A stretch of DNA of 64,000 nt, from positions 868,001 to 932,000 of the forward strand of contig NZ_CP094974.1 of NCBI RefSeq assembly GCF_022869805.1, written 5' to 3'. The notes under the pieces were generated by a model that saw only the letters and a program-made list of their open reading frames with translations, was not told the origin of the DNA and did not search any database. How positions within the stretch are numbered: position 1 is the first letter of the stretch; the number at the start of each line of letters is the position of its first letter. Source of the stretch: Halosolutus halophilus (GTDB taxonomy: Archaea > Halobacteriota > Halobacteria > Halobacteriales > Natrialbaceae). Made by a program: the position numbers and the translations under genes. Below, piece by piece: positions 2,201 through 18,436 of the stretch.

Positions 2201-2283
2201 ACCGGATCGTAACTCTCGAAGAATAAATAAGTATGTCATGCACCGTATAAATAGATCATACCGTGGTGAATGTTTGCGATCTA

Positions 2284-2368
2284 CGCGCTTTGTTTCTTGC
2301 ATCGATCACTCATTCTGCGTGAATACTGTCAGAAACGGTGTGATGATTACAGAGTATACGTCCATCAC
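2284..2368 (+). repeat. R element copy R1
   Basis: Left arm CGCGCTTTGTTTCTTGCA, middle ending ACTGTCAGAAACGG, right arm TGTGATGATTACAGAG, third box TCCATCACGA. The middle is nearly identical to that of R10 (shared CTCATTCTGCGTGA), so R1 and R10 form a subtype whose third box reads TCCATCAC instead of TTCAGCAC. Confidence 0.75.
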
Positions 2369-2460
2369 GACGCATCTGTTACTCCCCAGCCAGTGGAGAC
2401 GAACCGGCCGCTATGTGTAGATGCGAACGTATCGATTCTGGTGTCTGAGTAGGAGACCCC

Positions 2461-4569: not shown

Positions 4570-4625
4570 ATGCTCTGCTGAACGTATTCTCTGTATTCAA
4601 CACGCTGCTTTTGGCAGCTATCCGG
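4570..4625 (-). repeat. Inverted partial R element (R2')
   Basis: On the minus strand this reads a middle piece (CTGCCAAAAGCAG), then right arm CGTGTTGAATACAGAG and third box CGTTCAGCAGAG. The matching left arm is not recognisable. It is the only copy seen in opposite orientation, and it lies directly upstream of R2, which may be the scar of a rearrangement. Confidence 0.6.
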
Positions 4626-4719
4626 AAGGTCGATTGCCACTCCGTTACCTACTTGACCTCCACTGAGCGATTCCCCTTCCACGTGATCGGCTACCAACTC
4701 GTGCCAGATTCGCGCCCTG

Positions 4720-5653
4720 GGTCTTGTTTAGATGGTCGAAATCATTTGAGTTAGGCCCTGAGCGATTGTTCGATGTTTCTGACGGCGGCCTTAAGGACGA
4801 GTTCGCGGAACTGTCCGAACCACGTTCTTGCCTTAAGTGTTGAACCGAATCGCTTGCGTAACGCGAAAAACATCGATTCTGCGATAGACCGTTGATGGTA
4901 GGTTTCATCATCAATCCGAGCATTGTGTGTGGCATCGAGCGAGTAGAACTCACGATGCTTGATCACCGGTCTAATTCCCTCGTTTCGCAGCATCTGCCGG
5001 AGTTCATCCCAATCAAACCCTTTGTCGGCGACGACGGTTTCCACGTTGCTGAGGTTTCTTTTCAGGACTTGCCACGCAATCTGCGTGTCATGTGGTAGGT
5101 TCATTGAGCAGTGTACGTCGAGAATAGCTCGCGTAGAACAGTCTACGAGAATAGTGGTTTTAACCGACTCAAACGTTCCTTTGACGCGCTTTGCGTAGTT
5201 GTGGCTGGACGAGCGATGAGCGATGCTGGTTGAGTCGATTGCTTGTACCTCTCCGGTATCGAATAGTTCCGCCGACAGCTGCAGCAGCATCCGCCAGACG
5301 GGCATCTTGAGATCCTGTTTTCGAACACAAACGGTGGTGAAGTCCGGCAACTCATCCGGTGAAAGGCCGAGTTTGGCGACAATAGCTGGCATTTCTCGAA
5401 GAACGTCTAGCAACCGTCGGTAGGAGTGATCGAGGTATTCCCGAAGACCATGGATCGCTACGATCACCCAATCAGCGTAGCCACCCTTTCCTTTGCTGAG
5501 AGGTTCTTTCGAACCGCTTCCGACAGCTTTTTGAGACAATTCGACGCATCGTTCGGTGAAGCGGGCCAGTTTGGAGTGCACATCCACCTGTGCTCGCTTC
5601 ATTTCCTAGAATTCCCGACATAGAGGCAATATTACTAGCGTCTAAACACGGCC
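4720..5653 (-). mobile_element. IS5-type insertion sequence, copy 1 (934 bp)
   Basis: Terminal inverted repeats of 15 bp (GGTCTTGTTTAGATG at the left, GGCCGTGTTTAGACG read inward from the right) with 3 mismatches. Flanking 9-bp direct repeats are CGCGCCCTG (4711-4719) and CGCGCCTTG (5654-5662), one mismatch. A single transposase fills the element. Insertion is inside R2. The second copy at 16645-17578 has the same length, orientation and insertion point. Confidence 0.85.
4751..5602 (-). CDS. IS5-family DDE transposase (copy 1)
   Basis: 283 residues, the expected size for an intact haloarchaeal IS5-type (ISH1-like) transposase. DDE residues can be placed: first Asp in QAIDSTSIAHR, second Asp in VVADKGFDWDEL, and Glu in QRSIAESMFFALRKRFG, which fits the R-x3-E-x6-R/K signature. 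The N-terminal third (LREYLDHSYRRLLDVL, LPDFTTVC) is the usual target-binding region. The protein differs from copy 2 at about 20 positions, so the copies are not a recent duplication. The frame is uninterrupted and may be active. Confidence 0.9.
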   Translation of the reverse strand: MKRAQVDVHSKLARFTERCVELSQKAVGSGSKEPLSKGKGGYADWVIVAIHGLREYLDHSYRRLLDVLREMPAIVAKLGLSPDELPDFTTVCVRKQDLKMPVWRMLLQLSAELFDTGEVQAIDSTSIAHRSSSHNYAKRVKGTFESVKTTILVDCSTRAILDVHCSMNLPHDTQIAWQVLKRNLSNVETVVADKGFDWDELRQMLRNEGIRPVIKHREFYSLDATHNARIDDETYHQRSIAESMFFALRKRFGSTLKARTWFGQFRELVLKAAVRNIEQSLRA

Positions 5654-7136: not shown

Positions 7137-7169
7137 TCGTTCAAGCCTTTCTGACCCCTGTGACCGACT

Positions 7170-7256
7170 TGCGCCCTGTGTCTTGCAGAGACTTGACGAG
7201 CTACCGAACTGTTGTCAGAGGCGGCTCGCAATATTCAGAGGATAAGTTTAGCAAAC
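7170..7256 (+). repeat. R element copy R4
   Basis: Left arm GCGCCCTGTGTCTTGCAG, right arm CTCGCAATATTCAGAGG, third box GTTTAGCA. Here the left arm has CTTGC and the right arm has GCAA in place of the usual TTCAGC/GCTGAA, a compensating change that keeps the pairing. Confidence 0.7.
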
Positions 7257-9750: not shown

Positions 9751-9928
9751 GATGGTCCCACACACCCTCTCCCAAGTAATTGTAATCCCACTAATACAAC
9801 CTTATTTTGGCAGAATAAGGATTCTCGTACGAGGACTGTTTGTGAGAACTGGTGAGAGACCATTATCTACTTTATCTGTACTGAGCGTCCACCGCCTTCG
9901 CAAGCCGATCCGAATCTGTTGCAACATT

Positions 9929-9999
9929 CGCGCTATATATTCCGCAGCGGCTGGGCTTTCTACCGAGCGGCGTGCTGGATAGAGAGGTTGAATTTAGCA
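9929..9999 (+). repeat. R element copy R7 (short middle)
   Basis: Left arm CGCGCTATATATTCCGCAG, right arm CGTGCTGGATAGAGAGG, third box AATTTAGCA. About 15 bp of the usual middle is absent. The upstream extension CTGTACTGAGCGTCCACC is at about 9876. Confidence 0.7.
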
Positions 10000-10144
10000 A
10001 AGTGAACACGTTCTGTTCATCGGTGAGGGTCTGAATCGGCTGTTGTTACGGGACGGGAACCGGACGTACCGGGGGCGTTGATGAGGCGGCTTCGTGTGAA
10101 GAAACCACAAAAGGTATTTCAGGTAGCTCTCTCTGGGTGGCTGT

Positions 10145-16460: not shown

Positions 16461-16644
16461 ACGCGTCGATCTCAACCAATCCAGAGACGATCTCAGATAT
16501 CACTCTCTTTGGTGGTTCTGGGCGATCCAGGCCTACGTGACTACGTGCGGCGTATCTGGTCCTGAAGTGCCACGGATGTGTCCCTGTTGATCGAGTCCTC
16601 AACCGCTTTGATCGAAGGTTTGTGTCTGCTGAATACGCGCTGTC

Positions 16645-17578
16645 AGCCTTGTTTAGACGGTCAAGATTATCCGAGTTAGGCTCTGAGCGATTGTTCGATG
16701 TTTCTGACGGCAGCCTTTAGGACGAGTTCTCGGAACTGCCCAAACCATGTTCTTGCCTTAAGTGTTGAGCCGAAACGCTTGCGCAACGCGAAAAATATCG
16801 TTTCTGCGATAGACCGTTGATGGTAGATTTCATCATCAATCCGAGCATTGTGTGCGGCATCGAGCGAGTAGAACTCACGATGCTTGATCACCGGTCTAAT
16901 CCCTTCGTTTCGCAGCATCTGCCGGAGTTTATCCCAATCAAACCCTTTGTCAGCGACGACAGTGTCCACGTCGCTGAGGTTTCTTTTCAGAACTTGCCAC
17001 GCAATCTGCGTGTCATGTGGTAGGTTCATCGAGCAGTGTATATCGAGAATCGCTCGCGTAGAGCAGTCTACGAGAATAGTGGTTTTGACCGACTCAAACG
17101 TCCCTTTGACGCGCTTTGCGTAGTTATGGCTCGACGAACGATGAGCGATACTGGTCGAGTCGATTGCTTGGATCTCTCCGGTATCAAATAGTTCGGCGGT
17201 CAGCTGCAACAGCATTCGCCAGACAGGCATCTTGAGATCTTGCTTTCGAGCGCAAACGGTGGTGAAGTCCGGCAGCTCATTCACTGAAAGACCGAGTTTA
17301 GCGACAATAACAGGCATTTCCCGAAGCACATCTAACAATTGTCGGTAGGAGTGATCGAGATATTCTCGAAGGCCGTGAATCGCCACGATCACCCAATCAG
17401 CATAGCCATCTTTTCCTTTGCTGAGGGGTTTGCTCGGATCGCTTCCGACAGCTTTTTGAGACAATTCGACGCACCGTTCGGTGAAGCGGGCTAGTTCGGA
17501 GTGCACATCCACCTGTGCTCGCTTCATTTCCTAGAAATCCCGACATAGAGGCAATATTACTAGCGTCTAAACATGGCC
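16645..17578 (-). mobile_element. IS5-type insertion sequence, copy 2 (934 bp)
   Basis: 15-bp terminal inverted repeats AGCCTTGTTTAGACG and GGCCATGTTTAGACG (read inward) with 3 mismatches, flanked by perfect 9-bp repeats CGCGCTGTC (16636-16644 and 17579-17587). Same orientation, length and target position as copy 1 at 4720-5653. The right flank continues straight into the R11 left arm. Confidence 0.88.
16676..17527 (-). CDS. IS5-family DDE transposase (copy 2)
   Basis: 283 residues, intact, about 93% identical by eye to the copy at 4751. The DDE triad is retained (QAIDSTSIAHR, VVADKGFDWDKL, QRSIAETIFFALRKRFG). Most differences lie in the N-terminal third (GSDPSKP against GSGSKEP) and are conservative elsewhere, so both copies have been under selection or arrived separately from a family of elements in this lineage. 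Confidence 0.9.
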   Translation of the reverse strand: MKRAQVDVHSELARFTERCVELSQKAVGSDPSKPLSKGKDGYADWVIVAIHGLREYLDHSYRQLLDVLREMPVIVAKLGLSVNELPDFTTVCARKQDLKMPVWRMLLQLTAELFDTGEIQAIDSTSIAHRSSSHNYAKRVKGTFESVKTTILVDCSTRAILDIHCSMNLPHDTQIAWQVLKRNLSDVDTVVADKGFDWDKLRQMLRNEGIRPVIKHREFYSLDAAHNARIDDEIYHQRSIAETIFFALRKRFGSTLKARTWFGQFRELVLKAAVRNIEQSLRA

Positions 17579-17697
17579 CGCGCTGTCTATTCAGCACAAG
17601 CTGAACCAGCTACCGAGTTGTTGTCAAGAACGGTGTGCTGAGTACAGAGGATATGTTTAGTACGATGACAATGTTTATTTCAAACCGTTTTGGTGAC

Positions 17698-17877
17698 TCA
17701 GTCGTTTTGTCGTTGTGCGAACTGAGCAATTAAGGAAACATAAAGCACAATCACACTTACTACGAACCCACCAAATGCAATTTGAACAGATTCAACAAAT
17801 ATGCCGATAAATGATATATGAAGTCCGAAGACCATGATTTTCAGTCCCAATGTCCCGTTCAAGTTCGTGTCACTCAT
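17698..17877 (-). CDS. Small two-span membrane protein
   Basis: 59-residue frame, ATG at 17877, TGA at 17698. Sequence MSDTNLNGTLGLKIMVFGLH, then hydrophobic runs at about 11-27 and 34-51, and a polar end QFAQRQND. No family recognised. It is bracketed by R11 and R12 and is noticeably AT-rich. Confidence rests on the start and stop, the membrane pattern and its place as a one-gene unit. Confidence 0.5.
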   Translation of the reverse strand: MSDTNLNGTLGLKIMVFGLHISFIGIFVESVQIAFGGFVVSVIVLYVSLIAQFAQRQND

Positions 17878-18001
17878 TTATTGATATGGCATATTAATTG
17901 TTTATAAATCTCTTTAGCAACCCAACATCATCCCGGTTAGTCTAAGACCCGTATTGAGCGATCACCACCTTCGCAAATTGAGTTAGTCTTCGTGCGGCAT
18001 T

Positions 18002-18065
18002 CGTGCTTTATATCCAGCAAGATTACTGAATCATATCACCGTGTGAGAGTTTCAACAGAGCCAGA
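18002..18065 (+). repeat. R element copy R12 (degenerate)
   Basis: Left arm CGTGCTTTATATCCAGCAA is clear, and the upstream extension GTATTGAGCGATCACCACC (about 17951) is one of the best preserved. The right arm is not recognisable; only GTGTGAGAG and GAGCCAGACGTGCATAC remain. Confidence 0.5.
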
Positions 18066-18110
18066 CGTGCATACTTTTCGGCTCTCAGCTATTCATTTCA
18101 GTTCGGTAGA

Positions 18111-18254
18111 CTAGATGAGAAGTCCAAAAACGGCGATCAGCGCTCCGATAAACGACGCTCCGACGCCAATGGACGAAAACATTCCTGTACTGTTGAGAGA
18201 AAGAAATCCACCGGAGATAAGGAGAAGCAATCCAAAATAATACATCTCGTTCAT
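18111..18254 (-). CDS. 47-residue membrane microprotein
   Basis: ATG at 18254, TAG at 18111. Sequence begins MNEMYYFGLLLLISGGFLSL, and two hydrophobic runs cover nearly all of it with a glycine-rich turn (SSIGVGASFIG). No family recognised. It is a one-gene unit between R12 and R13. It may be a structural or regulatory microprotein; nothing in the sequence decides this. Confidence 0.45.
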   Translation of the reverse strand: MNEMYYFGLLLLISGGFLSLNSTGMFSSIGVGASFIGALIAVFGLLI

Positions 18255-18361
18255 GAATTGAGACTGTCACGATATAAGCATTAATCTTGTGGTCGTCAGT
18301 TTATTACCTGTCCTGACCGATCATCGTCCTCCGCAGATTGACCTTCGGTTCATACCACATT

Positions 18362-18436
18362 CGCGCTCTGTATTCAGCACGACCCAGCGAACATCATCGG
18401 TACCTGATGGAAATTTCGGCGTTCAGTTTGCACATG
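18362..18436 (+). repeat. R element copy R13 (right arm altered)
   Basis: Left arm CGCGCTCTGTATTCAGCAC is a perfect consensus and the upstream extension (CTGTCCTGACCGATCATC) is present. The right arm is replaced by GGCGTTCAGTTTGCAC, where the direct-repeat hairpin begins. It marks the right edge of the array. Confidence 0.65.

What the first reader, a model, noticed from the sequence alone, without database searches (positions are those of the whole stretch)
17698..18254. Membrane microproteins as cargo of the repeat array
At least five array units encode only a 47- to 86-residue, mostly two-span protein (2461, 6876, 7318, 17698, 18111), and another unit includes a 42-residue zinc protein (9254). 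They show no mutual similarity, so this is not gene duplication. Such sets of unrelated tiny proteins behind one shared boundary element suggest a functional class, for example toxins, phage-defence triggers or membrane modulators.
Basis: inference. Interest (0 to 1): 0.6.

Follow-up and report, generated by a model that had tools for sequence, protein, structure and literature searches.

The report
Archaeal cassette arrays carrying small proteins
The tiny membrane proteins are real but ordinary salt-archaeal genes; what is unusual is the repeat between them, which looks like the recombination site of a previously undescribed gene-swapping (integron-like) system, whose probable enzyme sits inside some copies of that same repeat.

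Summary
17698 (59 aa), 18111 (47 aa) and 7318 (71 aa) are real: they belong to haloarchaeal families of small two-span proteins. But relatives mostly lie outside the repeats (7318 0 of 11; 17698 1 of 15), no partner gene recurs, and units with only genes under 100 aa are 38 of 209. They are cargo, not a class.

The repeat is the real find: two inverted half-sites around a 39-bp centre, at least 150 copies here, in 117 of 121 family genomes, in one-directional arrays (258 same, 36 opposite) with about one gene per interval. Cassettes shared between species break at half-sites, not in the centre (1 of 23, 7.5 expected). In 12 distinct loci a ~234-aa catalytic-domain tyrosine recombinase gene occupies the centre; five distant recombinases of that size lack flanking elements. 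Its characterised relatives are Int1 invertases of haloviruses. Best reading: mobile gene-cassette arrays, integron-like in layout but not integrons. Catalysis is untested; this genome's only copy found carries a stop.

The parts
17564..17664 (+). Element (L half, centre, M/R half) starting the 17698 unit; an IS abuts its left half
   Evidence: 83 bits in nhmmer; M core at 17636; IS end 59 bp before it
17698..17877 (-). 59-aa two-span membrane protein gene
   Evidence: 85% aa relative in G107 as a complete cassette; family in 16 of 391 Halobacteria genomes
17933..18022 (+). Left flank and intact L half of a degenerate element ending the 17698 unit (L half 17997-18019)
   Evidence: sequence; repeat families D6/D7; G107 similarity ends at 18022
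18111..18254 (-). 47-aa two-span membrane protein gene
   Evidence: 76% aa relative in G116; family in 11 of 391 genomes
18296..18384 (+). Left flank and intact L half of the last element of the array (L half 18356-18379)
   Evidence: 23 bits; D13 89%
2275..2369 (+). Element
   Evidence: 44 bits
2461..2637 (-). 58-aa hydrophobic frame, weakly supported; shares its unit with two other genes
4573..4668 (-). Element, the only opposite-orientation one in the window
   Evidence: 42 bits
5639..5739 (+). Element, IS abuts left half
   Evidence: 78 bits
6730..6849 (+). Element with longer centre
   Evidence: 63 bits
6876..7136 (+). 86-aa two-span frame
   Evidence: 48% relative annotated in Haloarcula plasmid; codon score negative
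7157..7255 (+). Element
   Evidence: 45 bits
7318..7533 (-). 71-aa two-span membrane protein gene
   Evidence: 25 of 125 family genomes; codon-position bias in 11 of 11 scored
7655..7752 (+). Element
   Evidence: 86 bits
8473..8573 (+). Element
   Evidence: 37 bits
9254..9382 (-). 42-aa zinc-ribbon-like frame; unit also holds 8660 (PEBP-like, by eye) and 9475 (PadR-like, by eye) genes
   Evidence: zf-C4_ClpX 20 bits, below cut-off 27
9916..10014 (+). Element
   Evidence: 53 bits
11468..11561 (+). Element
   Evidence: 37 bits
12617..12706 (+). Element
   Evidence: 40 bits
14763..14862 (+). Element
   Evidence: 60 bits
4708..5652 (-). IS with 283-aa transposase (4751-5602) next to an element half-site
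   Evidence: D1 repeat
16633..17577 (-). Second IS copy (16676-17527 transposase) next to an element half-site
   Evidence: D1 90%

Best explanation
The window lies at the right end of a mobile gene-cassette array of Natrialbaceae. The ~95-bp boundary element consists of two inverted half-sites, L (..CGCGCCCTGTATTCAGCA) and M/R (TGCTGAATACAGAGGATGAGTTCAGCAC), around a 39-bp centre. A catalytic-domain-only tyrosine recombinase of the halovirus Int1 type, encoded in some copies in place of the centre, most likely recognises the half-sites and exchanges strands there, so that a gene between an M/R half and the next L half (or next M/R half) can be moved, inserted or lost as one unit. Ordinary copies look like recombinase-less versions that serve as landing sites. 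Small membrane proteins are one kind of cargo, captured from the haloarchaeal pool. Shown: the element, array direction, about one gene per unit, cassette reshuffling between species with breaks at half-sites, the recombinase gene lodged between half-sites. Inferred: that this recombinase catalyses the exchange, circular intermediates, and use in trans in genomes lacking an intact copy.
For: Core TGCTGAATACAGAG: 126 matches (up to 1 mismatch) genome-wide, 0 for the reversed control; at least 150 profile matches (scoring cap); 117 of 121 family genomes. Neighbours under 3.5 kb: 258 same, 36 opposite. Genes called per unit 1.20, shuffled 0.06; 142 of 209 units carry exactly one; in the annotated Natrinema salinisoli plasmid the intervals mostly hold one CDS. 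Four adjacent cassettes of G010 match cassettes at three separate regions of this genome at 92-96%, with breaks in the M core. Of 25 one-sided junctions, 23 lie in the element: 15 at M/R, 7 at L, 1 in the centre (7.5 expected under uniform breaks, P=0.0014; non-overlapping subset 1 of 17, P=0.011). L and M arms are the best covarying inverted register of those scanned. Recombinase gene with a half-site on both sides in 12 distinct loci; 8 of 8 named-plasmid loci tested against a mean of 0.08 for random placement; in L209, L212 and L213 the two flanking matches together cover most of the centre. Closest virus relatives 43-47% identical: HCTV-5 integrase and PhiCh1 int1; in PhiCh1/PhiH1 that gene sits between inverted repeats and switches tail fibres (PMC6210493, passages).
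Against: No recombination was observed. The only copy of this recombinase found in the own genome has an in-frame stop, and searches were exhausted before its distribution over the 121 genomes could be measured. Junctions are few (25 pairs, 19 non-overlapping). The half-sites are also the best-conserved stretches, so homologous exchange through short identity could favour them. Genes point both ways relative to the element (131:117). The M-R dyad has a 13-nt spacer, wider than a canonical dif site. Some shared genes break outside the element (e.g. L008/L029; 2 of 25 junctions). Two integrase-bearing loci (L217/L079, L218) show a half-site on one side only and truncated genes.
Confidence: 0.62

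Rival explanations
1. The elements are a MITE-like family: internally deleted copies of a recombinase-bearing transposable element that inserts by itself, often in islands; cassettes move only by homologous recombination between dispersed copies.
For: The ordinary copy looks like the recombinase-bearing copy without its gene; patchy high copy number; breaks lie in the most conserved blocks.
Against: 258:36 orientation bias and about one gene per interval are not expected of independent insertions; shared cassettes move with parts of both bordering elements; the centre is avoided.
Confidence: 0.25
2. A true integron: IntI with attI and attC sites.
For: Inverted-arm site, unidirectional array, single-gene cassettes.
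Against: The recombinase scores 15-19 bits against 265 for integron integrase; strands of the element fold weakly (mean z -1.36 and -1.21 of 70); gene orientation unbiased; no attI-like platform noticed (not searched for).
Confidence: 0.03
3. The microproteins are a functional class (toxins, defence triggers, membrane modulators) selected to sit at this boundary.
For: Several short two-span proteins occur as single-gene units; units with only small genes and a hydrophobic span are 15 of 90 here.
Against: Relatives mostly lie outside elements, no partner gene, no defence-model hit, most units carry other genes.
Confidence: 0.06
4. The boundary is a regulatory signal (terminator, insulator or structured RNA) with no role in mobility.
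For: Intergenic in annotated plasmids, conserved, palindromic.
Against: No Rfam hit in window 1-25000; consensus RNA structure -0.34 kcal/mol; cassette breaks fall in it.
Confidence: 0.04

Closest known systems
Invertible Int1 module of haloviruses PhiCh1 and PhiH1 (tail-fibre switch)
   Same: Int1-type tyrosine recombinase (43% identity for PhiCh1 int1) encoded between inverted repeats (PMC6210493, passages)
   Different: There it flips one module; here the half-sites recur in at least 150 mostly recombinase-less copies with cargo genes between them; the half-site motif has no match within 2 mismatches near PhiCh1 int1 (two at 3)
Integron / cluster of attC sites lacking integrase (CALIN); archaeal integrons of Ghaly et al. 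2022
   Same: Long arrays of single-gene cassettes separated by palindromic recombination sites; arrays without an intact enzyme
   Different: No IntI, no attI seen, weak folding, cassette genes in both orientations; that survey reports 75 MAGs in nine phyla, and 'Halobacter' does not occur in its main text (PMC9668308, passages)
pdif / Xer-dif modules (recalled)
   Same: Tyrosine recombinase, small modules between short dyad sites
   Different: Spacer and arms differ; the recombinase here is element-encoded, with PF00589 as its only Pfam match
IS1111-attC elements (recalled)
   Same: An IS specialised on cassette recombination sites
   Different: Here an IS with a 283-aa transposase is found at the half-sites; relation to IS1111 not tested

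Membership tests
Integron | IntI-type integrase | tested here: not met
   integrase_gron 15-19 bits against cut-off 265
Integron | attC folding as a strong single-strand hairpin | tested here: inconclusive
   mean z -1.36/-1.21, 70 elements; L/M arms covary, shuffles ignore relatedness
Integron | attI platform beside the integrase | not tested
   none noticed; no dedicated search made
Integron | Unidirectional array of single-gene cassettes | tested here: met
   258:36 neighbours; 142 of 209 units with one gene
Integron | Cassette genes mostly in one orientation | tested here: not met
   131 with, 117 against the element
Tyrosine recombinase (PF00589) | Catalytic R..K..HxxR..H/W..Y | tested here: met
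   R65, K124, R184, W207, Y216 invariant, H181 nearly so in 14 sequences; PF00589 over cut-off; residue roles recalled
Halovirus Int1 invertible module | Int1-type gene between inverted sites | tested here: met
   12 distinct loci with both halves; both gene orientations seen
Halovirus Int1 invertible module | Inversion switches expression of flanking genes | not testable with these tools
   needs populations or expression data
Xer/dif site | Two 11-bp arms, 6-nt spacer | tested here: not met
   M-R arms 9 bp with 13-nt spacer; dif definition from PMC8371274 (passages)
Toxin-antitoxin module | Conserved adjacent partner gene | tested here: not met
   no recurrent neighbour beyond close genomes for three families

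The most novel reading that the evidence does not exclude
Halobacteria possess their own, independently evolved gene-cassette system: hundreds of recombinase-less copies of an Int1-type invertase element act as docking sites that collect and shuffle single genes, including many undescribed microproteins, across genera, in parallel to bacterial integrons.
Probability: 0.5. Interest if true: 0.9.

Novelty: new variant of a known kind. Interest (0 to 1): 0.76.

Why it matters
Haloarchaea exchange genes intensely, and no dedicated cassette system of theirs turned up in the open-access papers searched. A native system would explain AT-richer islands full of single unrelated genes, would give an archaeal counterpart of integrons with a different enzyme and site, and would provide a ready way to harvest small unknown proteins: read the units between elements. 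The stepwise prediction (this recombinase acts on these half-sites) is directly testable.

Tried and rejected
The 311-aa integrase next to an own-genome array (L015:10835-11770) was first taken as the array enzyme; rejected because it occurs in 22 of 121 family genomes, is missing from element-rich ones (e.g. G005) and is present in G022, which has no element match. Two other integrase families, present in all six genomes compared, element-free ones included, do not discriminate (nine genomes were searched, proteins read from six). Weak integrase-like hits of 220-310 aa were put down to BAT/HTH_10 domains shared with fused integrases; one 476-aa example was checked, the rest by inference. A coding reading of the element (the fixed 51-bp L-M offset is a multiple of 3) was dropped because of in-frame stops and weak periodicity (by eye). 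ssDNA hairpin as main feature: weak. RNAalifold found no long stem. Viral contigs for the recombinase: none. PDB: XerA best, E 0.008. Structure prediction was not run: the homologues came from sources the tool excludes, and a two-helix model would not decide function. Pairs with an IS end in the element were dropped from the junction count, and units containing the IS transposase from the unit count. Of the 40 recombinase hits listed, 14 were fetched by hit id and a 15th record was read through H2.

Full report
WHERE. The window is bases 868001-932000 of a 5.06-Mb single-contig haloarchaeal genome.

THE SMALL PROTEINS. The two frames of the finding are there, on the minus strand, with ATG starts and two hydrophobic spans, and beat dinucleotide shuffles of their units (1 of 1000 and 0 of 1000). 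Relatives: 17698 in 4 of 125 family genomes by single-sequence search and 16 of 391 class genomes by profile; 18111 in 3 of 125 and 11 of 391; 7318 in 25 of 125. Scored relatives are 46-65 aa (17698) or 51-58 aa (18111) with start and stop in place. Third-position excess: 13 of 14, 5 of 10 and 11 of 11 relatives at p<0.05; because alignments were chosen by protein similarity this is inflated, and conserved length is the more independent sign. The closest 17698 relative (G107) shows no codon bias (differences 6, 6, 3), though its frame is more alike (92%) than the whole 340-nt match (86%). A second own-genome copy of 17698 carries a TGA.

NOT A CLASS. Elements near relatives: none in 11 loci of 7318; for 17698, one of 15 loci with elements on both sides and two with a single weak distant hit; none in 10 for 18111. 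Neighbours do not recur beyond close genomes. Pfam, NCBIfam, PADLOC and PHROG name none of the focal proteins. By a codon score trained on long frames near elements, 38 of 209 units have only genes under 100 aa, 21 of those 38 with a hydrophobic span, and 23 units have none called (the score misses 17698 and 18111, so small genes are undercounted). The unit with 2461 also holds a 97-aa holin-family gene and a permease.

THE ELEMENT. An information profile of 42 seed copies gives a ~95-bp element: L half, centre of fixed length, M half, R half; of 71 core matches with an L arm found within 90 bp, 67 had the same 51-bp offset. 126 core matches against 0 control; at least 150 profile matches here (cap), 117 of 121 family genomes (at most 32 scored per genome). 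Plasmids of Natrialbaceae, Haladaptatus, Halorussus, Haloferax and others carry it, 26 records. Neighbouring elements point the same way in 258 of 294 pairs under 3.5 kb (regions were chosen for elements, so counts are not genome averages). Unit length median 982 bp of 177.

CASSETTES MOVE. Four consecutive cassettes of G010 (L034) match this genome near 4.93, 1.93, 3.006 and 3.011 Mb at 92.2, 95.8, 95.2 and 94.3%. The 17698 unit is 84.8% identical to G107 over window 17622-18022, from just before the M core of its left element to just after the L arm of its right one. Of 25 one-sided junctions, breaks by likelihood fall at M/R 15, L 7, centre 1, outside 2; simulations with uniform breaks put 7.5 of 23 in the centre (P 0.0014; 0.011 without overlapping pairs). 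L-M is the best covarying inverted register of those scanned, e.g. -44/+4 CG 131, TA 23 of 189 (relatedness not corrected).

THE ENZYME. Scanning 122 loci for recombinases gave a clade of roughly 180-265-aa frames (intact ones ~234 aa), PF00589 their only Pfam match where tested, in arrays of six genomes. tblastn found relatives in 42 haloarchaeal plasmid records, 16 covering at least 80%. Flanks of ten top-group loci and five distant ones were read: half-elements lie at one or both gene ends in the top group and not in the distant five (one 10-bit hit 2.9 kb away). With array loci included, 12 distinct loci have a half on both sides of the gene, two (truncated genes) on one side. Forward order L-gene-M/R: L209, L212-L216; reverse: L210, L102, L093, L124, L015; L211 ambiguous. 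In L209, L212 and L213 the two flank matches reach model positions 52-57 from the left and start at 64-65 on the right, so the gene sits in the centre of what is otherwise an ordinary element. Random intervals give a mean of 0.08 of 8, observed 8 of 8. A second short clade (L128) also has halves on both sides, its relative L118 does not. Closest viral relatives are HCTV-5 integrase (47%) and PhiCh1 int1 (43%); in PhiH1/PhiCh1 this gene is flanked by inverted repeats and switches tail fibres (PMC6210493, passages). The own-genome copy (G000:3706310-3707014) is complete in length but has an in-frame stop; no other own copy was seen among the 11 PF00589 matches.

MECHANISM. Recombination between an M/R site and the next L or M/R site, in cis or trans, would excise or insert one gene with its half-sites (inferred); recombination across L and M/R of one recombinase-bearing copy would flip its gene, fitting the two orders seen. 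MITE-style spread is the main rival and may be part of the truth.

NOVELTY. Searches of the open-access library for haloarchaeal integrons, cassettes and repeats showed nothing describing this; subscription papers and preprints are not covered. PMC8371274, PMC9668308, PMC2841640 and PMC6210493 were read in passages only; others were seen as listings.

Noticed in passing
window:4708-5652 and 16633-17577; L005, L009, L011, L013, L014, L015, L017, L045, L046, L052: An IS (ends TGTTTAGACG) and short derivatives with ends about 138 and 239 bp apart lie at element half-sites: 15 of 30 ends are within 80 bp of an element core against 4.5% expected; by eye most other flanks also read half-site-like sequence.
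   Followed up: partly
L097, L023, L061, L031, L038, L072: The cargo cluster found in most genomes (15 genomes, 39 members) appears to be BAT/HTH_10-type regulators.
   Followed up: partly
L128:971-1750: A second single-domain recombinase clade also lies between two half-elements, while its relative in L118 does not.
   Followed up: no
L015:3310-4014: Own-genome copy of the cassette recombinase, full length but with an in-frame stop.
   Followed up: yes
window:2801-3094: 97-aa protein of a family annotated 'bacteriophage holin' in several haloarchaeal plasmids.
   Followed up: no
window:14980-15394: DUF302-like gene apparently broken by a stop beside two SHOCT-like membrane proteins (by eye).
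   Followed up: no
window:552-1562: HTH-like protein with weak Csa3 similarity (20.3 bits) and cysteine pairs.
   Followed up: no
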